From NCBI GenBank assembly GCA_947034895.1, contig OX344764.1, positions 48,403,348-48,467,347 on the forward strand: a stretch of DNA of 64,000 bases, in the 5' to 3' direction. The DNA is from Rhytidiadelphus loreus. Lineage: Eukaryota; Streptophyta; Bryopsida; Hypnales; Hylocomiaceae. Positions 3,429 to 21,590 of the stretch are shown here, in pieces; within the stretch, counting starts at the first letter, position 1, and every line of letters begins with the position of its first letter. The translations under genes were made by a program, and so were the position numbers. The notes beneath the pieces were generated by a model. That model was not told where the DNA came from. It made no database searches and saw only the letters and a list, made by a program, of their open reading frames with translations.

Positions 3429-3871
3429 ATCCACCCTGATCCTAGAAATGGTGCAAAAACAGTGCAGATGCAGTTGAGTTGATTTTCTGACATTAAGAAA
3501 ACTCATTCAGATTGCTTGGTTTCAGGACCATGAGCAGTCCATAAGGGGGGCTCCATATATGTACGTTTTGTGATTGAAGAGAATGCTATTAAAAAGCACA
3601 GACAAAAATTCAGATGCTACCAATTAAATGCAATAAATTTTAGGGAAGGTCATAAATGAAAATGGAAAGTGTAACAGTGATTGCCTAGCAAGTAAGTAAG
3701 ATATTGATTTCAATTATTTATTTTTTTGGAACAAATGAATTGATTTCAATTATGAATGCAATCCATTACAAAGAGTTGCTCCATTTTTGGCACTCTCTGT
3801 GTGATTTCTACAACTTCTATGAACGTGGCTAGCTTCATGTCAGTTAATTTTGGGATTCACCTGCTCCATTC

Positions 3872-5141
3872 AAAGCCACATTCTAGCTCCGATGATCAAT
3901 CTAATCAACCTACGGTGGTCCTCCAATATAAAGCAAACCTAGATATACGACTTGGTGGACCACCAAGGACCTGGATGCTCCTAAGTACTACTACTTTCAA
4001 AGTAGTCCTGCCTGCCTCTAATACACTCATTGACTACCCGCCTTTAGACGCCAATGGCCTGCACCAATGTACTGGGACACTCCATAGGGTACACATCACG
4101 AGTATTATCCAAGGACCATGCCACAACAACATCCTTATTTACTACGGACGTGTCGACCGCTTGAGATGGGATCCACACAAGTTGCAATGGCCCGCAAAAC
4201 AAGGATACACTCCATTTATGCACTTTAGTACTAAACAAGGGCGTGCCTTGCTCGCTGCTAAGCACATTTTGCCCAACATTGTTGAACGGAAATGGCAGGG
4301 CATCCTCCCTACATCCTTTCGTCTTAGATGGAAAACAGTGTGGAGGAACCCCGTCTCTCCAAGGAAGCCGGACTACTATGGCTTGTTTGGCATCGGGTTG
4401 TCGCTGTGAATGCATGGCGTGGCCGCATCCACACTGTCTTAGACATAGGTTGCCCAGTTTGCCCACGACACAGCCACGAATCAGTCCTACATCGCTTCTG
4501 GGAGTGCCCGGCGGCTCATCGGGCGTGGCAATGGGGGATCCATATTTTGAACGTAGTGGTCACCTCAAAGGATGCTCGTGGCCCATGGTGACCACTCACT
4601 TGGAAGCAAGGGATTTTCTCCGCCCGCATTCCACGGAAATTCGACCACGTCAGCAACTTGTGGGGTATTCTTTGCACTGTCATCTTGTGGACATTGTGGA
4701 TTGAGCGGAATGACGCGGCCTTCAATGACATCAAGTGGCAACCTGCCAAGCAGCTACAACGCATTTGGCTTGGCATTGTGGATTATGGGCGGCTTGAATG
4801 GGAGAAGACTGGGAGCATGATTGCGAAACAACCGGATAACGCTACTCGCATTAGAGACCGCTTCGAGCGACGGTGGTGCCAGCATAACGTTATTGCCACC
4901 ATGATCGAAGGACAGCCTCGTTGGACTATCTCTAGGCCCCGGGCTGGCTTTGTTTTTCAACCTCCATAGACTGTTTGCGCCGTGGAGGCTCGGCTCCTCC
5001 CAGGCGCCCTGTTGTGCATTATTCTAACCCTCTTGTCTTGTTCTGCCTAGGCTGTTCTCAGCTGGGCTTTGTATTTTATATTCTTTTGCAGTAAAGGTTC
5101 TCCTTTATTTGTGTCAAAAAAAAAAAAAAGCCACATTCTAG
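3872..5141 (+). mobile_element. 5'-truncated LINE (L1-type) with target duplication
   Basis: The insert runs from about 3887 to the end of an A-tail (about 13 A) at 5126. The 15-bp sequence AAAGCCACATTCTAG occurs at 3872-3886 and again at 5127-5141, directly after the tail, which is the signature of target-primed reverse transcription. Only the end of ORF2 is present, so it was probably dead on arrival. It sits in AT-rich intergenic DNA. Confidence 0.85.
4140..4969 (+). pseudogene. LINE ORF2 C-terminus with zf-RVT domain (broken)
   Basis: This is the carboxy end of a plant non-LTR reverse-transcriptase polyprotein. The first part reads in one frame to about 4400 (LRWDPHKLQWPAKQGYTP, then a WKTVW segment). 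It then shifts to the frame of 4328-4591, which carries the zinc-binding motif CPVC...H..WECPAAHRAWQW characteristic of zf-RVT. An in-frame TGA at 4589-4591 interrupts it, after which the same frame continues to 4969 with WTLWIERNDAAFN, a standard post-zinc-finger segment of plant L1 elements. One frameshift and one stop make it nonfunctional. The 3' UTR and A-tail follow directly. Confidence 0.8.
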
Positions 5142-8879: not shown

Positions 8880-10400
8880 ACTTTCATGGTACATTTGAAA
8901 GCACCCTTTGCAAAAGCACATAAACTTATTGCCACATGAGGGGCAATAAGTCTTGGGCCTTGTCAAGGACAATGAGCCATCATTGCAAACGACATAAGGT
9001 TTACGCAACTCTCTAAAAGTTGGGAAACAAATACGTCTTTGTCGAGTTGTTTGAATGACCTTCTAGCATCATTTTCTATGACGGTTTTCAATGAGTGCTT
9101 CACATAATTGAGTTCAAAACTGTAAATGAGTCATAGGATGACGAGGGGGATTACAATCCTTGCATTTGTCCAAATAAATGATATGCTTGTGTCCACAAGG
9201 AAAAAAAACCCTCAGTGCCACCATCTATGCAACTAGGTTTGACATGTATAAGAAGCATGCAATTGATCTGCTGCATCAACGCCTCACATGTGTGTTGTGT
9301 ATTCAAGGTGCATTGGAAATGTTTGAATGTTGTTTCGAATTGATCCATTCCGTTGTGGTATTGATACCACTGAAAATTGCCACGGAAATTGAATGGGCAT
9401 GGCATGTGTAGAAATAATAAAACCCGGCTTCTTATCTTTCCATAACATTGAACTCATTTGTTTAGACTCGTGCATGTGCCACTCTAAGGTTCTTTGTGCA
9501 TGTCGATTGAATCCCTTCTTATCCTTCAAAGCATCTGGAAGGCCTACTCGATTAGAGCAAATAGTGCATGTAGCGTAAGTCCCTCTTTCCAATAAGTCTT
9601 TGAATAAAGCAATGGACAAAAAAAATTGTTCATAGGAATGACATGACCCTTGCCTTCATTCGGAGACAATAAACAAAGAACCACATTATGCGCTAGTCTA
9701 GCCTCTCCCCTAACCCCTTCACATAGTGCTTGAGCTTCTTCTTGTACTACATGACTTTTACTACAATAAATCTCAAAATTTGATACAAATTTTGAAATAG
9801 AGTCTACGAAACACCAAACCTTCAAACTCCACTTCTAAGGTTTTTGTGGTATGTACTGTCGTGTTGGACAATATTTGCCTTTGTAACAAATCATCATTTC
9901 ATCTATGGTAGCAAACTTCCCAACTTTCTATACTCTCTTGCAATTACTTCCAATCGCATCAATCAACCACCTCACTTGGCCTATCTTTTCATAACTTGGC
10001 ATTGCCCTATCCCTCTCATATCTACTTGGATAAGTAATGTGCAAGCACTTTGTCAATAGTACAAATCTAGACCGCAACATGAGGTTTGAGATAGTTAGGC
10101 AGTGGAATAAAAAACCTTTCTTGTGCCAATAAGTTTTTGTGTTGGGTTGATGCTCATATCCATATACAAAATGATAGCCATAAAAACTTTAAGTTTTGCA
10201 ACATAAAGTTCTTCCTAATTTGGACCACCATAAATCTCACCATCCGTATTGACCACGGTTGTATATTAGTTAGTCCTGGCAACAATGCTATGTAAAATCC
10301 AAAGTGGACAAAACATCTCAAATAAGTTGAAGAACGTTGAAAAAATTCTCCATGAAACATTTGACCTAAAATATCCATGAAATGCTTGGGGGTGCAGGTC
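8880..10400 (-). pseudogene. decayed piggyBac transposase (relic 1)
   Basis: This relic belongs to the DDE_Tnp_1_7 (piggyBac) family and is read on the minus strand. An N-terminal scrap lies at 10154-10402. The first catalytic aspartate region (TIDEMM, then YKGKYCPTRQYIPQKP) is near 9900, followed by KWSLKVWCFVDS at about 9800. The second aspartate position reads MNNFF instead of TDNFF (Asp to Asn at 9628-9630). GTYATCTICSNRVGLPDALK and WKDKKPGFIISTH follow at 9400-9590, then a degraded WWH-containing helix near 9200. A cysteine-rich tail (CPSCGNKFMCFCKGCFQMYH) lies at about 8890-8955. Several frameshifts and stops make it dead. It is homologous to the transposase at 19.4-22.3 kb but belongs to a different subfamily. 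Confidence 0.8.
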
Positions 10401-10714
10401 ATATGTAATGAAAGACTTATTTTATGTCAAATTGCGGTACATGTGTTTCATGCTATTAACATCACCAACCACACCATCATCACCATTGTCTTCTTCTTCA
10501 CTAAAGTCAAATTTGACATGGTCAAGTTCTATGTCACTATCATTGACAAAATTTATATGATCATTTTCCTCATGAAAAACATATATCTTGGCATTCTTGC
10601 CCCCTCCCCCTCTACATCATCATCATCATCCCCATAAAAATCAACATGCAAGCCAAGCCCAATGCCATCACCCCCATGCCAAAATGTATCAAAATGACCC
10701 CCATCCCCAACCCC

Positions 10715-10799
10715 GTCCCTTAAAGCCTCCTCTCCAGTCCCTAAGGCCTTTCCTCGAGTCCATGAGGCCTCCCTTCTAGTCCCTGAAGCCTCCTGTAGA
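10715..10799. repeat. four tandem 21-22 bp units
   Basis: Units begin GTCCCTTAAAGCCTCC, GTCCCTAAGGCCTTTCC, GTCCATGAGGCCTCCC and GTCCCTGAAGCCTCC at 10715, 10737, 10758 and 10779. It is a short, diverged minisatellite that directly precedes the GAC-N5-GAC array. A CAT trinucleotide run lies just before, at about 10615-10630. Confidence 0.75.
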
Positions 10800-10837
10800 T
10801 AGAATTTTTATTTTTATTTTATACTTTTTGAAAAAGA

Positions 10838-13361
10838 GACAATTAGACAAGTAAAGATTAATCGAGAACTAGAACAGAGTGTGAACTAGGACAAATAGAC
10901 ATGTGGTTACCGAAATGACTATTAGACAACCCGTTAACGGTTAGTTACAATCAGTTAAGGACTAATAGACCAAGCAGTTAGTGTAAGTGGTTACAGCCAA
11001 GAAAGAGTACAAAGACTAATCGACCGTTGAATTTCAACTCTCTCTCAGGCTTGCAGTGATTGCATTGCCGATTTTTATACTGGTGTATTCCTTCAAGCTT
11101 TAATGCAGAAATTTTGTCTATTTGTTTTATGCTCGGTGTAGCCAGTGATTGGCTTTGTCCTTGTTGTTGTTTTGTATTTTCTTAGCCAAGGATTGGCGGT
11201 GTTTCTTGAGTTTCCTACTTTGTAAGTCAATTGTGCAGAAGAGAGAGAGCCTGTCAATTGATCTTATATGTTTGTGCAAATAGTTCAAATTGTCTTATGT
11301 GCCAGTGAGTGGCTTTATTGATCAAGTATAGATCGAAGTTCAGTGAGAACTAGGAGGGACAATTTGACCGTATCTGTGAGAGCTGGGCGAGGACAATTGG
11401 TCCATAGTTGAGACTAGAGGACAACTCGCTGGAGCTGACCAAGGCAGGAGAGTAGATCGAGGACAAATTGTCTGCGGATGGAGCGGAAAGACTACTCGAC
11501 TGGAGCTGCGATTGTGGGGAAAAGCAGAAGACAAATTGACGGTAAGTGTGACTAACTAACTCTTTTGTAATTGAAGTGCTATGTTTGGTTTAGTTGTCGA
11601 TTTGTCATAGGTCTGTTTCCTTAATTATGAGGTGGTGATATATCATGAGATTAAAAATTAAGAATTAAGTTTGAGCCAGTGATTGGCAAACTAATTCTTT
11701 GAAGAGAGTCAAATTGTCTATGAACTTATTCAGTAAAGCATATAACCAGTGATTGGATTATGTTATGCTTTGGTCAAATAGACAATAAATTCTCAAATAT
11801 TAGTAACCAGGGATTGGTGCTAAGTATGACAATTAAACTGAGCCAGGGTATGGCAAAATCATTAGTAAGGTCAATTAAGCAGTGGTTGATAATAACCTGT
11901 AGTAAGCATTAAGATCAGCTCTATTCAAATTTGAAGTCTATTGGACAAAGGCTAAGTTTCTTGATACCAGTGATTGGTTATCCAAATTTATGGATAAGTC
12001 TAATAGTCAGTTATGAAGATTATTTGTGTCTAAGTCAATTAGACAGTAAATGAAATATATCTGCATTATGTGATTGTGTTATGAGGCAAATAAATAAAAA
12101 GATTAGTGAGTATTAAATAACCAGGAATTGATGTTAAAGTTATGACAAATAAATTGAGCCAGTGATTGGCAGTGTGTGACCCTGGTTGCTGGACTAATAG
12201 TCAAGTGGTATAAACATCACATGTTTTGAAGTCTATTAGTCATTTCTATAAATATGTATGTTTGGTTGTCGTTGTAGTCAAATGGTCTGGAGAGATTGTA
12301 TTAAGATGATTTACAGTTAATGGAAATTAATGTAAGACTAATGGTCTGTGTATGGTGATTAAGTTGAGAGGACTAATTGACCAAGTTGTGTGAGAACACC
12401 AAGTGCAGGTGTAAGGAGCTCAATTGCATGTTATAGATAGAATCTATTTGTGCTCCTCATTGTAGATTGAAATGTGAACTTGACCAAATTGACAAATTGC
12501 CCTGTATGAAACCTTTGTATGTGATTTATGTATTAACCTTGTTTGGGAAATTGGCCAAATTGACTACCATTACACATAAGTTTGCTTGTGGTGCTACCAT
12601 AAGCAAGTCTATTTGACCATGTACATGACTATTTGACCAATTAGTAGTAGCCTTGTTAAATTGTTGGTGTGAAATCTTGGACGAATTGACCATCTGTCGG
12701 ATACTATACACTCAGCTATGCATTAGTATAGCAAGACCAATTGACAAATGACTATTTGACAAAGTAGCAAGTAGGATGCTGATTCAATAGTAAATGAGTA
12801 CTGTGAACCTTGGTCTAATTGACATACTATGAACTAAAGGTTGAAAAGAAGAATCGACAAGACTATTTGACCTGTCCTGTGATAAATGGACAAACTCTCA
12901 ACCTTTGCATAATTTGCATACTGAGACAATTTGACAATTACAGACTTTGATATTTGCATCCTTGCATAAGTAGTAATTAGATTAAAGTAAACAGTGACAG
13001 GACCAATTGACAATGAATTAAATATAAAGAAGTAATTAAAGAAATACACAAAGGTGTTTATATACACCAAAAATATATCTATATATGTACTGTGTATGTG
13101 ATTAAGTCGATAGAACAGGAGCCATGACAAATTGACATACCTTGGACTATTTGACATTAGAAATTCTAGTACAAGACTGTGACCGTAAGTTTATAGATAT
13201 TTTTATGGGTTATGGACTGTGATTCGTATAGGTCAGGACAGTGAATACAATCATACCACACACAAACATATTTATAAAGAACTTTTATACATTGATTTAT
13301 AGAATGGAGAGATAATTCTACGTAAAAGTGACCTTAGATACAAAACGATAGACTACTTGAC
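10838..13361. repeat. dispersed GAC-N5-GAC motif array (unclassified)
   Basis: Over 2.5 kb a degenerate 11-mer recurs irregularly: two GAC triplets separated by five mostly A/T bases. Examples are GACAATTAGAC (10838), GACTAATAGAC (10960), GACTAATCGAC (11014), GACAATTTGAC (11358) and GACAAATTGAC (11530). Further ones are GACTATTTGAC (near 12625, 12747 and 12860), GACCAATTGAC (near 12732 and 13003) and GACTACTTGAC (13351). I count about 24 same-direction copies on either strand plus about ten facing versions (GTC-N5-GAC or GAC-N5-GTC). The spacer length is almost constant. No open reading frame spans it. A region of transposase-binding subterminal repeats, a regulatory array or an old satellite are all possible. 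Confidence 0.75.
11141..12170. repeat. CCAGTGATTGG motif array
   Basis: About ten copies of an imperfect palindrome (CCAGTGATTGG, with variants such as CCAAGGATTGG, CCAGTGAGTGG and CCAGGGATTGG) occur at about 11141, 11185, 11301, 11674, 11744, 11806, 11841, 11967, 12120 and 12157. They are interleaved with the GAC-N5-GAC motif. Two stretches (about 11797-11860 and 12111-12177) also align over about 65 bp, indicating a higher-order repeat with a step near 313 bp. The motif contains ATTGG, the inverse of a CCAAT box. Confidence 0.75.
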
Positions 13362-15248
13362 CTTTCCCCTTACTAAAGAACCACCACTAGGTTATTCCTT
13401 GGGTTTTTGTTCCCAAGTGAAAATAATTACTACACCTCCATTCTAGCCCTGGCCAAAAAAGCCCTAGCCCTACCTCCAATAGAATTTGATCCCCCAACTA
13501 GGGCCAAGGGGGGACTTAGACCCTCGAGTTGCTGTTGGATAGAGGGCCAATTTGCCTCCAATTGGGGTTGATGTGCCTACCAAACTCCCACTAGTTCCCA
13601 ATGGTCAAGTTGTTCTTAAGTGTCAAAGTAATTGTCATCATAGTCACCAATGTATGTTGCATCTTGAAGCTTGAAATTGTCTTGCAATGATTGTGGTACA
13701 AGAGGGACATATAAGGGTGTCAGGTAGTCTAGTTCTTGAATTGCTATAGGTGGCAGTGTAGAACTATGAAGTGATGGAAGAGAATTGCAAGATGTAGTTG
13801 CAAATTTTGAAAGCAATCTACATTTTCTCCTCACGAGTAAACCATCCCAAGCAATCTACAAGACAGTGGAGAGAACCAACATTAGAAATTGGAATAGCAT
13901 GCATCAATGAGGAAGAAGTTGTGGAGAGAGAAAACACTCACCTCTTTGTTCTTCATAATAGATCTCTCTTTAGTCATGGCTTTTCAATTTCTTGTCAATG
14001 AAGATGAAATCTTCCTTTATGTTTCCAATTTCTCCTTGTGAGATCATGTATTGCAAAGAAATGGAGTTCCAAGTTTGGAGTGCCTTTTTTTTCCACTTCT
14101 TTACATATTGAGGTGAGTGGGTGAGAGGAAATTGAATGTAAGGCAAAATTCAATGAAATAATGTGTTCATTGATTAGTGGGGGTGCCATAGTTGGCTTCT
14201 TTTATAAAAGTGGGTGGTATTTTTTTAGCCCACCTAGTTATGCATTTATTGATTATGCTTCAAGTTGAGGGAAAATTAAGGCAATTAGCAATCTTGTCTT
14301 TGTTTGATTAGGAAATTTCTCTTTTTATGGACAATCATTACTAACATTGAACAAGTCATCACTAAAATTTGACAATTGCTTTGAATTACAAGATTCTTTG
14401 GGTAGAAAATTTATTGCCGTAGTTTGTGACTCTACTTTAATTCTAGAATTCTACAATCTTAGTGATTGGAGATTGTTCTCCTAAATCTAAATGCAATGGC
14501 AATTTGACAAACCCACAAAAAATCTACTTCATTGCCATTGCAACTGCGTCGACCTTCACCGTTGCACTCCCTAGCATGCTTCACCTCCCCTCTCCCCCTG
14601 TTCCCGTTTCTCTCCCCGTTCCCGTTTCTCTCCCCCTTCCCCCTTCCCTCCCCCTTCCTAGCTCCTCACTAAACTTTGTCCCGCTCTCTAGCCCTCCCTA
14701 GCTCACTCCCTAACAAATTAGACCTGCCTCCTGCTACCCCTCACCCGTGCACCTCCTTGCCCCTCACATCGTGCCCTTCATCAAATTTTAGAAAGTAAGT
14801 TGTACTTGTGTTGGCCTCCATGTGTAAATTTTACAAGATTTGCGATAATTTTTAAATGACAAAACCAATCTTCATTAATTTTTTTTCCATATTGCCCTTA
14901 CAAAACTCTATCTTTCAAAAAATCCAATTAATTTGAAAAATAATTACTATAGTGAGAATATATCCGATTTCCATTTTGTCCCTTGAGAGGACTTTGACCC
15001 ATTACATGTTTTTTGGCCTTTGAGAGGGGGCAACAAGTTCCCCTACGTTCTGTTGTGTTCCTAAACCTTGAAAACTCCGTAGCAGCAGCCTATTGACGTG
15101 GCATAGGGACTACCACATTAAAATTAAAATTAAAAAATAATTTTTTAAATAATTTTTTATTTCACACAGCACAGGTTGGTTCCCAACAACGGGAACCAGC
15201 CTGAAACGGCCCTCCCGGTAGGCCAAAAAATATGTAATGCTTTAGGGG
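13362..15248. other. gene-less stretch with a C/T-rich tract
   Basis: No gene was recognised. A pyrimidine-rich tract with a CTCCCCGTTCCCGTTT-type repeat lies at 14583-14670, and its apparent 79-residue reading frame is low complexity. The segment 14980-15248 has facing similar sequences (CATTACATGTTTTTTGGCC and its near-inverse CATTACATATTTTTTGGCC), suggesting a small element that ends at the TTAA at 15249. Confidence 0.5.
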
Positions 15249-19357: not shown

Positions 19358-21590
19358 TCAATCATGACTGGAACTTCGGTGACAAGTACTGTGCTTCATC
19401 TGCAAACACTGCACAGCGCCGACCTCTCCCCATGATGTACAACTGCGCCACTGTTTCTTGCTCTGCTTACCAGTTGAGTGACCTTGCGCTTCAACGTCGC
19501 AGAGAATAATGAGTGCGTGTGAAGCACTCTCCCATGTGGAGATGCATATCCCCACATTGCAAGCAAGTGAGATTTTGTCCGCTTATTTGAAAAGCAAAAC
19601 CGGCACTTTCTCCTACTTCTGCTGCGCACAAGACAGTGGACTGCCGGCGCCGCTAATCGGAAGCTAGACACGCAGCCTCTCTTCAACATCCATGGCTTGC
19701 ACAGTGCTTCAGCTAGAAGCAATTGGAAGTCGACACGGTGCATGGACTCTTGCTGCAGTCTCTCCGAAATGGCTTTGTAGATAACGTAACAGTTCACCAC
19801 TGAAGTATCTAGTAGGAAAAAAAATAACCTGTGCCACCATTTGTGGCTACAAACCTGAGAAGAGTACGCACTTCGGAGCTGATCAGCAACGTCAACGCCC
19901 CTCATGTACTTCGTGTAGCCTTTGAGCATTGGAGAAGCGGCTATTTTTTTTTCTTCACCACCAACCCTTCTTGGAACAGTGGGCCACTCTTCATCCATAG
20001 GGGGCAAGGGTGCGTAGAAGGAGGAAAAAAGCAGTACAGGTCGTTTATCAACCCACACAACGCACGAAATTTGCCTACTTTGATGCATCCGCCATCCTAC
20101 TGTTCCTTGAGGCTGCTTAGCGAACAACTTCTTCTATGAAATAGCTTTTGGAAGGCCAATGCGGTTGCTTACCACTGTACCCGTGCTGAAAGTTCCTAGA
20201 GCAGCTAGATCAACGACGAGCTTCACAAAAGTAAAGAAATTGTCCGTGACAACAACGTGTCCCCGGCCATGCAAACCTTGCATCAACAGCATGACGACCT
20301 CGTAGCCCGTCTTCGCACCCACAACAAAGGATCCAGCAAGTGCATCCCGTTGTGCTGATCCAGTGTAAATCGAAAAATCATAGACGTAGTACTTTCTTGC
20401 ATCTGCCAAACACCAAACCTTTATCCCCCACTTGGTAGGTTTCTTGGGAAGGTATTGCCGAATCGGACAGTAGGTGCCTTTATAGCGCACCATTGATTCG
20501 TCCATAGTAACTTCTTGATGTAGCTGCCAATTTGCTTTACATTTGGCCTTCATTTCGAAGAGTGGCCATCCCAACTTCACCAATTTCTCTCCCACATTGA
20601 TCCCTCCATCAACGTCTACAGTTGTGTCATCAACTATATGCAAGCAGCGAGTAATGTCCTCAAAACGGTCTTTAGACATCGTTCTTGCTATGACGTCACA
20701 GTACAGGAATGGAGATTTCTTCTTCCAGTATGACCTGTGGTTGGGTAGCTTTTTGATGCCCATCATCAAAGAAATCCCAAGGAAAGCTCGTAATTCCATT
20801 AGACAAAGACCCCACCATCGTGGGCCGCCCATAGGAAAATGAGTTTCGGGGTGAGCTTCACTTGCATATCTATTTGTTTCTTCACAGATCCTCTCCAACG
20901 TCTTCTCTGTCCAGAATCTACCAAATAAGGAAATCTTGGATGGCATGCGTCGATATGAGAAATGAGGGCCTGGCGACAGTCCTGTAAAGCGGACGGGATC
21001 GTGGATGTAGCTGCGATGCTCAGTTGTCCACGTCTCCTCCAAGAATGTTGTTGCAAACGCTGTAGCCGCCGGTACCGCATTAACATGACTGCGACGCCTT
21101 GATGTAGCGCCAGCAGTGCTAGCCCGTCCTTGCCATTGAGTAGTGCCAGTGGCACAAGCCGTAACAGGCGGTGGAGTGGTAGTTGGCAACTGGCCATTAT
21201 GGTCTTGACCACCAATTGCATGCGTAGGTGCATGAACCGTTCTGCATGCACTGGCAACACCAAGGATTTCACAGGGGCACTTCATTTTGAAATCTAGCTT
21301 ATTTTGGCCAAGAGCGGGAATTGCGGAAGTGCACCCGCCTCGGTGGTCGACAGGATTGGGAACATAGCCGTCTCTCCTATGGTTCAGCAGTTGCATTGCC
21401 AGTGTACATCGCTCCTTGTTCCGTCGCTGTCGCTTGGCGGATGCTATCCCTAGTGTTGCTGCGGTTGTCTTCGGTAGTTGTGAGCAGCTATTATCAAGGA
21501 GTACTTGCTGGAAAACATCGGTGAAGGGAGGCAAGTAGTCGTTGCTGCAAATATCAGTGACAACACGATGCTGTAGCACCCATGAGGTGT
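19358..21590 (-). pseudogene. piggyBac transposase, near-complete with one stop
   Basis: This is a DDE_Tnp_1_7 transposase, the enzyme that cuts and pastes TTAA-flanked elements. Read on the minus strand, the core runs in one frame from about 21579 to 20134. It passes HFPMGGPRWWGLCLMELRAF, the first catalytic Asp in TMDESM (20500-20502), YLPKKPTKWGIKVWCLAD and the second Asp in VVTDNFF (20242-20244). An in-frame TAG at 20134-20136 follows GLPKAIS. The same frame then resumes to 19396 with the third Asp in GVDVADQL (19891-19893) and KWWHRLFFFLLD. A cysteine-rich tail (KCRFC...) starts near 19610 and needs a frame change near 19555 to continue (VGICISTW). All three acidic residues survive, so decay is recent, or the TAG may be read through or spliced. 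Confidence 0.85.

What the first reader, a model, noticed from the sequence alone, without database searches (positions are those of the whole stretch)
10838..13361. Array of a spaced motif, GAC-N5-GAC, over 2.5 kb with no known explanation
Two GAC triplets separated by five mostly A/T bases recur about 24 times in direct form, plus about ten facing forms (GTC/GAC). Chance in 2.5 kb would give about one. The spacing inside the unit is constant (8 bp GAC to GAC), but distances between units are irregular, so it is not a satellite or CRISPR. Selection for a protein-binding unit is a natural reading. The right half carries many TTGAC (W-box) cores, but the left half (TAGAC, TCGAC) does not, so W-boxes alone do not explain it. 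It could be a transposase-binding subterminal region of a large element, or a regulatory or replication array.
Basis: seen in the sequence. Interest (0 to 1): 0.75.

Follow-up and report, generated by a model that had tools for sequence, protein, structure and literature searches.

The report
Retrotransposon LTR packed with palindromic sites
The 2.6-kb stretch is the leftover end (solo LTR) of a jumping element, and this element and its relatives carry a precise palindromic site, probably protein-binding, over their control and 3' regions, even inside a gene, with outer bases that differ between families, which suggests that they may carry their own DNA-recognition code.

Summary
In detail: 25 direct plus 10 facing G[AT]C-N5-G[AT]C units; shuffles average 1.1 (maximum 5 of 1000). 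The unit is sharper than stated: an 11-bp palindrome, GWC-N-AWT-N-GWC, 31 sites. The block is a solo LTR (10794-13434, TSD CCTCC) of a Ty3/gypsy retrotransposon; 28 other LTRs match at 88-97%. In one copy the first 7.7 kb of the internal region (5' ORFs, gag, nearly all of pol) has no site, the next 6.4 kb has 47, 16 of them inside a 3' ORF (synonymous shuffles: mean 2.0, maximum 7). Over 14 LTR copies the fixed bases vary less (0.033) than flanks (0.090) or the rest of the LTR (0.078). Four sampled families share the core CNAWTNG but differ in outer bases; one clade with intact 3' ORFs has no array. A GTGAT-loop hairpin with covarying stem recurs in the LTR. Best reading: sites for a lineage-specific, probably element-encoded, dimeric DNA-binding protein that marks the element's own DNA for activation or anti-silencing, working like Arabidopsis VANC. 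The array is shown; the binder and its effect are inferred.

The parts
10794..13434 (+). solo LTR (2641 bp, TGTAG...TACA) of the F1 Ty3/gypsy family
   Evidence: second copy L011 aligns from 10794 to 13434 (pieces of 90, 85 and 87% identity); 28 other matches from the LTR start to the query end (13420) at 88-97%. Strand: same as gag-pol in L028.
10789..10793 (.). target-site duplication CCTCC, left copy
   Evidence: Sequence.
13435..13439 (.). target-site duplication CCTCC, right copy
   Evidence: Sequence.
10838..13155 (.). 31 palindromic sites GWCNAWTNGWC (first 10838-10848, last 13145-13155); a degenerate site GACTACTTGAC follows at 13351
   Evidence: positions listed.
11053..12169 (+). 12 hairpin-like copies of CCA-GTGAT-TGG (loop GTGAT, A-T closing pair, covarying outer pairs), all in one orientation; three weaker matches lie further right
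   Evidence: with L044 copies; with all weaker matches kept.
13059..13090 (+). TATA-like sequences conserved between two copies, possible core promoter (inferred only)
   Evidence: (TATA matches at 13059 and 13080, among six in the LTR), alignment.

Best explanation
The block is a solo LTR left by recombination from a Ty3/gypsy retrotransposon (family F1; LTR-LTR spacing about 16.7 kb, so about 19.3 kb full length). In this lineage the LTR and the segment from near the end of pol to the 3' LTR are studded with a double-stranded, two-fold symmetric 11-bp site, GWCNAWTNGWC in F1. The simplest mechanism is a homodimeric DNA-binding protein specific to the lineage, most likely encoded by the element (candidates: the sense 3' ORF, which by eye has a coiled-coil-like stretch and a Cys/His-rich C-terminal part, or the two small 5' ORFs). 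It would bind many sites per element (31 in the 5' LTR and 47 after pol in the copy examined; about 109 if the 3' LTR, which was not fetched, is like the 5' one) and so tell the element's own DNA from the host genome, keeping it open (anti-silencing) and/or activating LTR transcription. Core CNAWTNG is shared by the sampled array-bearing families; outer bases differ, as expected if each family's protein and sites drift together. Shown: LTR identity, array, its symmetry, its confinement, its conservation between LTR lineages, selection inside coding sequence, family-specific flanks. Inferred: that a protein binds, that the element encodes it, and that the effect is activation or anti-silencing.
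For: LTR. Palindrome with a fixed 1-bp centre (78 sites against 0, 1, 0, 0 for centres of 0, 2, 3, 4 in 9.05 kb of F1 LTR and post-pol DNA), all four orientation classes present. Confinement: 31 per LTR, 0 in the first 7.7 kb of the internal region, 47 in the next 6.4 kb; a second copy has 53 in 7.7 kb. 3' ORF: 16 sites against a synonymous-shuffle mean of 1.98, maximum 7 of 2000; all three frames. LTR diversity over 14 copies: fixed 0.033, W 0.048, N 0.073, 10-bp flanks 0.090, rest of the LTR 0.078, G and C of GWC outside sites 0.131; 0 of 5000 resamplings of flanks or rest as low as the fixed bases (which corrects). Families: core CNAWTNG 10-17 per kb in F1, F2, L043, L044, L047 against 2.2 per kb in the rest of the window; outer G/C in 179/214 half-sites in F1, 57/232 in L043 (Fisher 8e-38), 111/206 in F2 (3e-11). 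In another family's presumed LTR (C1:2911212-2913436) 18 of 20 listed sites have A at position 4 and T at position 8, against 6 of 31 in F1, p=6e-7. Genome: 17,657 sites against 3,502 for the reversed pattern. Extra ORFs conserved between F1 and F2: 43% (3'), 57% and 28% (5').
Against: Two sampled elements with intact 3' ORFs (L045, L046; one clade) have no array (core 3.4 and 2.9 per kb) and no replacement motif was found, so the 3' ORF does not strictly go with the array. No DNA-binding domain is recognised in the 3' ORF (only sub-threshold Transposase_32 matches, 30.2 and 18.5 bits against a cut-off of 45). Between two internal regions 96-98% identical the fixed bases are not better conserved (8/324 against 139/6493). 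There are 34 one-mismatch relatives beside the 78 exact sites. The 12 right-hand sites of the LTR all contain TTGAC, which a host WRKY factor could read. Families share ancestry, so a shared core alone does not prove co-evolution. Most sites are not in tandem repeats, unlike VANC targets. No expression, binding or methylation data.
Confidence: 0.55

Rival explanations
1. A host transcription factor binds the sites: the array is a U3 enhancer that the retrotransposon evolved for its host's activator.
For: 31 sites lie in the LTR, some next to TATA-like sequences; the 12 right-hand sites all contain the W-box core TTGAC; several families of one lineage share the core CNAWTNG; plant LTRs are known to carry repeated host-factor boxes (recalled).
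Against: Sites continue over 6.4 kb downstream of pol and inside a coding region at the cost of codon choice; outer bases differ by family, which one host factor would not require; one related clade lacks them; 14 of 31 LTR sites lack T at position 8, so W-boxes do not explain the set.
Confidence: 0.27
2. The motif works on the element's RNA or cDNA (packaging, cDNA protection, nuclear import) rather than on chromatin.
For: In the RNA the arrayed part is one contiguous 3' block (post-pol plus U3); a separate covarying hairpin in the LTR points to RNA-level elements.
Against: The motif is an IUPAC palindrome used in all orientations, and positions 2 and 10 do not pair (30 of 47 post-pol sites have the same letter at both), so it is not a stem; an RNA reader would hardly accept both strands. 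cDNA binding remains possible.
Confidence: 0.1
3. Passive spread: local duplication or mutation bias made the array, with no binding function.
For: A few sites lie in old local duplications (L029 about 1150-1250 and 1390-1490 are 75-77% alike); decay is mostly C to T or G to A; no extra conservation between near-identical internal copies.
Against: Irregular spacing, no strong flank consensus, conservation above flanks across 14 LTR copies, excess in three reading frames of the 3' ORF.
Confidence: 0.04

Closest known systems
VANC anti-silencing proteins and their YAGTATTAY arrays in Arabidopsis VANDAL elements (PMC5735166, PMC10398659; passages seen)
   Same: Short motif at high density in one mobile-element lineage and scarce elsewhere; related families carry different motifs; candidate element-encoded factor.
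   Different: VANDALs are DNA transposons (recalled); VANC targets are mainly non-coding, often tandem repeats, with motifs in one orientation. Here the carrier is an LTR retrotransposon, the site is palindromic, mostly not in tandem repeats, and also written into coding sequence. Binding is not shown here.
[quoted passage not shown] passages seen)
   Same: Long region between pol and 3' LTR with extra ORFs that may bind DNA.
   Different: Retand extra ORFs are mainly antisense with TRP28 (PF04195) and LTRs are 315-1194 bp; here the long 3' ORF is sense, no PF04195 match was found, and the LTR is 2.6 kb. The passages seen mention no dispersed palindromic site array.
Foamy virus Tas and its LTR binding sites (recalled, no call)
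   Same: A 3'-encoded DNA-binding activator acting on its own LTR.
   Different: Few sites, no known relation in sequence (recalled).
Tnt1/Tto1 U3 enhancer boxes (recalled; PMC3316501 seen only as a search listing)
   Same: Repeated short motifs in an LTR U3.
   Different: Few tandem boxes for host factors (recalled), not dozens of dispersed palindromes.

Membership tests
Ty3/gypsy LTR retrotransposon | LTR with TG...CA ends and 5-bp target-site duplication | tested here: met
   CCTCC on both sides of 10794-13434; GGGAG at L011; 8 of 14 LTRs examined show a flush 5-bp TSD in the script's output, 3 run into the internal region, 3 were not resolved by it (one of these, L037, reads GGTAC on both sides by eye).
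Ty3/gypsy LTR retrotransposon | gag, then RT, RNase H and integrase in that order | tested here: met
   For the family, not the window copy: on L028:2291-7366 (gag 48-137, RT 1036-1193, RNase H 1259-1388, integrase 1489-1662; protease only sub-threshold). The window copy is a solo LTR.
Retand lineage | antisense TRP28 (PF04195) ORF between pol and 3' LTR | tested here: not met
   The long 3' ORF is sense. No PF04195 hit at E up to 0.1 in the sense ORFs or in five antisense ORFs of 103-146 aa; shorter antisense frames were not scanned.
Retand lineage | reverse-transcriptase phylogeny | not tested
   No reference set was used.
VANC-type anti-silencing system | dense short motif in one element lineage, scarce outside | tested here: met
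   F1 11-bp site: 31 in the LTR and 47 post-pol against 1 in 61.4 kb of window and 1 in 104.8 kb of flanks. One search left out L001-L008 (24 kb), which hold 4 sites, 2 each in L001 and L008. Other repeats of the genome also carry sites.
VANC-type anti-silencing system | motif largely confined to non-coding DNA and often in tandem repeats | tested here: not met
   16 of 47 post-pol sites lie in the 3' ORF; inter-site distances in the LTR are irregular.
VANC-type anti-silencing system | element-encoded protein binds the motif and removes silencing | not testable with these tools
   No binding or methylation data; candidate ORFs only.
WRKY W-box array | TTGAC core at each site | tested here: not met
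   Position 8 is T in 17 of 31 window sites: 12 of 12 from 12371 on, 5 of 19 to the left.
DNA transposon subterminal repeats | terminal inverted repeats at the ends of the element | tested here: not met
   Ends are LTR ends; of 33 inverted-repeat pairs in 9500-15000 the 25 shown do not bracket 10794-13434.

The most novel reading that the evidence does not exclude
A lineage of Ty3/gypsy retrotransposons encodes its own sequence-specific DNA-marking protein and has written a palindromic address code over its LTRs, intergenic DNA and even codons; the code's core is shared and its outer letters have split between families, so that each family marks only itself. This would be a second, independent origin of VANC-like self-recognition, in a retrotransposon.
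Probability: 0.42. Interest if true: 0.85.

Novelty: new variant of a known kind. Interest (0 to 1): 0.72.

Why it matters
How mobile elements escape host silencing without opening the whole genome is an open question; in the papers whose passages I saw, sequence-specific self-recognition of this kind is that of Arabidopsis VANDALs. Here one genome holds several sister retrotransposon families with the same core site, different outer bases, open candidate genes and a natural array-less clade as a control. That makes protein-DNA co-evolution directly testable by binding assays across families.

Tried and rejected
Rejected: chance; W-box array as the whole explanation; satellite or tandem array (irregular distances; no tandem-repeat row inside 10838-13361); DNA-transposon subterminal repeats; helical phasing of sites (no peak near 10.5 bp); an RNA stem formed by the GWC arms. 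Paper searches: nine; eight bear on the question and one (85) on the organism; their listings showed no description of such an array in an LTR retrotransposon, and only they support that statement.

Results against my reading: L045/L046 have the ORF and no array; no excess conservation between near-identical internal copies; a first genome-wide pattern of two GAC-N5-GAC units 21 bp apart was hardly above its control (135 against 115); 34 one-mismatch relatives exist beside 78 exact sites; in the second part of the F1 3' ORF alone the seven-base core is not clearly above synonymous shuffles (13 against mean 7.3, maximum 14), although the 11-bp site over the whole ORF is (16 against 2.0). In one search the core beats all 1000 shuffles in F2, L043, L044 and L047 (the last with 7 stops) and sits at the mean in L045 and L046.

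Mended on checking: one search had counted about 30 bases of host flank at each end as background (0.091); restricts it to the LTR (0.078; the conclusion stands). Rows dropped: 3 of 15 hairpin-like matches in the window and 2 of 9 in L044 were left out; with all 24 kept the covariation score is 0.228, 0 of 500 shuffles as high. L001-L008 were left out (they hold 4 sites).

Full report
WHAT IS IN THE SEQUENCE. The spacer is not free: its second base is A in 35 of 35 and its fourth T in 33 of 35. The unit is GWC-N-AWT-N-GWC, which equals its own reverse complement in IUPAC letters. There are 31 such sites in the block, 1 in the remaining 61.4 kb of the window, and 1 in 104.8 kb of flanks of other loci (L001-L008, 24 kb with 4 sites, were not in that last count).

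WHAT THE BLOCK IS. A second copy (L011, C1) aligns from 10794 to 13434. Both copies start TGTAG, end CTACA, and are flanked by their own 5-bp duplications, CCTCC and GGGAG: solo LTRs. A whole-genome search (203 candidates, 40 scored) lists 28 further matches running from the LTR start to the end of the query (13420) at 88-97%, and several LTR pairs about 16.7 kb apart on the same strand, including three LTRs in a row at C1:33147680, 33164385 and 33181090.

THE ELEMENT. The internal region of one copy (L028, L029) holds two small 5' ORFs (159 and 164 aa), a 216-aa ORF, a 1692-aa gag-pol ORF with gag, RT, RNase H and integrase in Ty3/gypsy order, and a sense 3' ORF in two pieces of one frame, 391 and 603 aa, interrupted in this copy. 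A second family, F2 (about 18.15 kb, LTRs about 2.26 kb, TSDs TTTGT and ATTAT read by eye from the flanks printed), has the same plan: its 3' ORF is 43% identical over 516 columns and its 5' ORFs 28% and 57% identical. The N-terminal part of the 3' ORF matches Transposase_32 weakly, below the curated cut-off.

WHERE THE SITES ARE. In the F1 copy there are no sites in the first 7.7 kb of the internal region (both 5' ORFs, gag and nearly all of pol); the first lies at L028 7796. From there to the 3' LTR there are 47 in 6.4 kb; a second copy's 7.7-kb stretch (L042) has 53. The 5' LTR of the first copy (L030) has 31; with a like 3' LTR, which was not fetched, that makes about 109 per element. In F2, 4-5 sites lie in each LTR and 11 in the internal region, all after pol. 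Sixteen F1 sites lie in the 3' ORF in all three frames; shuffling synonymous codons gives 1.98 on average and at most 7 in 2000 trials. The sites thus seem selected as DNA even where they are codons.

SHAPE OF THE SITE. Over 78 F1 sites the centre must be 1 bp (0, 1, 0, 0 sites for centres of 0, 2, 3, 4), there are 34 one-mismatch relatives, and all four orientation classes occur. Outside the 11 bp there is only a weak symmetric trend (C just before the site in 0 of 47, G just after in 2 of 47), which CpG loss could explain. This is what a two-fold symmetric protein dimer on double-stranded DNA would leave. In 14 LTR copies, pairwise diversity is 0.033 at the fixed bases, 0.048 at W, 0.073 at N, 0.090 in 10-bp flanks, 0.078 in the rest of the LTR and 0.131 at the G and C of GWC triplets outside sites; 0 of 5000 resamplings of flanks or background were as low as the fixed bases (correcting). 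A subfamily (L031-L033) has sites of its own. Losses are mostly C to T or G to A, as in methylated, silenced copies (inference). Between two internal regions 96-98% identical there is no extra conservation (8/324 against 139/6493), as expected for dead insertions.

OTHER FAMILIES. A protein search with the 3' ORF found 74 matches in the same genome (245 candidates, 73 scored), 13 of them F1-like at 93-100%, the rest 30-56% identical. I fetched five non-F1 places. The seven-base core CNAWTNG runs at 14.8 and 10.6 per kb in F1 (LTR, post-pol), 13.7 and 13.1 in F2, 17.1 in L043, 10.6 in L044, 10.1 in L047, but 3.4 in L045 and 2.9 in L046; the first 7.7 kb of the F1 internal region has 3.5 and the rest of the window 2.2. 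A protein tree groups L047 with F2, and L045 with L046, so the sample holds four array-bearing families and one array-less clade. Its long branches make the deeper order unsure. Outer bases differ: the outer G or C is present in 179/214 half-sites in F1, 92/140 in L044, 111/206 in F2, 65/138 in L047, 57/232 in L043 and 51/274 in the rest of the window. In the presumed LTR at C1:2911212-2913436, near another 3'-ORF place, all 20 listed sites begin GACA and 18 have T at position 8. Genome-wide the F1-type site occurs 17,657 times against 3,502 for the reversed pattern; a fixed pair of GAC-N5-GAC units was hardly above control (135 against 115).

A SECOND ELEMENT. Twelve short hairpin-like copies of CCA-GTGAT-TGG lie at 11053-12169, all in the sense direction. 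They give a covariation score of 0.261 (1 of 500 shuffles as high; cells paired 51/500, further pair types 458/500). With 7 from L044 it is 0.291 (0 of 500; sliding controls at most 0.102). With all 15 window and all 9 L044 matches, the weak ones included, it is 0.228 (0 of 500; slides at most 0.084). Pairs of exact copies 20-50 bp apart occur 113 times in the genome (70 and 43) against 0 for the reversed pattern; many of the listed ones recur at LTR-LTR distances near places. One orientation and covariation suggest an RNA structure in the LTR transcript (inference).

HOW IT LIKELY WORKS. A lineage-specific dimeric DNA-binding protein, probably encoded by the element, would coat LTR and 3' DNA and mark it as self, opposing silencing or activating transcription. 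This is how VANC proteins work in Arabidopsis VANDALs (PMC5735166, PMC10398659, passages seen), where dense motifs recruit the element's own factor and related families use different motifs. Retand retrotransposons also carry extra post-pol ORFs with predicted DNA binding (PMC11963269, passages), but mainly antisense and with another domain. Against: the array-less clade keeps its 3' ORF, and no DNA-binding fold is recognised, so the binder may be a 5' ORF product or a host protein.

VERDICT. As far as the listed paper searches reach, the array is not described.

Noticed in passing
window 19396-21579 (-): piggyBac-like transposase (DDE_Tnp_1_7) in two ORFs, interrupted in this copy; 43 relatives in the protein collection, one with an organism name.
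   Followed up: partly
window 11053-12169; L044 4446-4850; 113 pairs genome-wide: Hairpin CCA-GTGAT-TGG with covarying stem in LTRs of several families; near C1:2911573 the printed sequence suggests a longer stem with one bulged A (read by eye).
   Followed up: partly
window 12371-13155: All 12 palindromic sites of the right third end TTGAC, only 2 of the 19 to the left end TGAC: a local variant of the site, or an added W-box function.
   Followed up: partly
L045, L046: Sister elements with intact 3' ORF (853 and 855 aa) but no palindromic array: a natural control or a lineage that changed its code.
   Followed up: partly
C1:33147680-33183719; C1:2911518-2947575; C3:63696128-63728063: Three LTR-like units in a row at equal spacing: signs of unequal recombination between LTRs.
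   Followed up: no
L032 and L042 (C2:60052125-60072017): LTR 88-91% identical to the window copy while the post-pol region is 96-98% identical to the C1 copy: LTR and internal parts seem to have different histories.
   Followed up: no
L011 about 3499-3597 and about 3786-4600: Two insertions inside the second LTR copy; the first (about 100 bp) has inverted ends with CACTATACG, MITE-like (read by eye).
   Followed up: no
C1:237614/237622, 483911/483919, 515790/515798, 1418654/1418662: Overlapping double sites such as GACTATTGGACTATTGGAC (8-bp step) recur at dispersed places, and site pairs 25 bp apart recur elsewhere: other repeat families carry the motif too.
   Followed up: no
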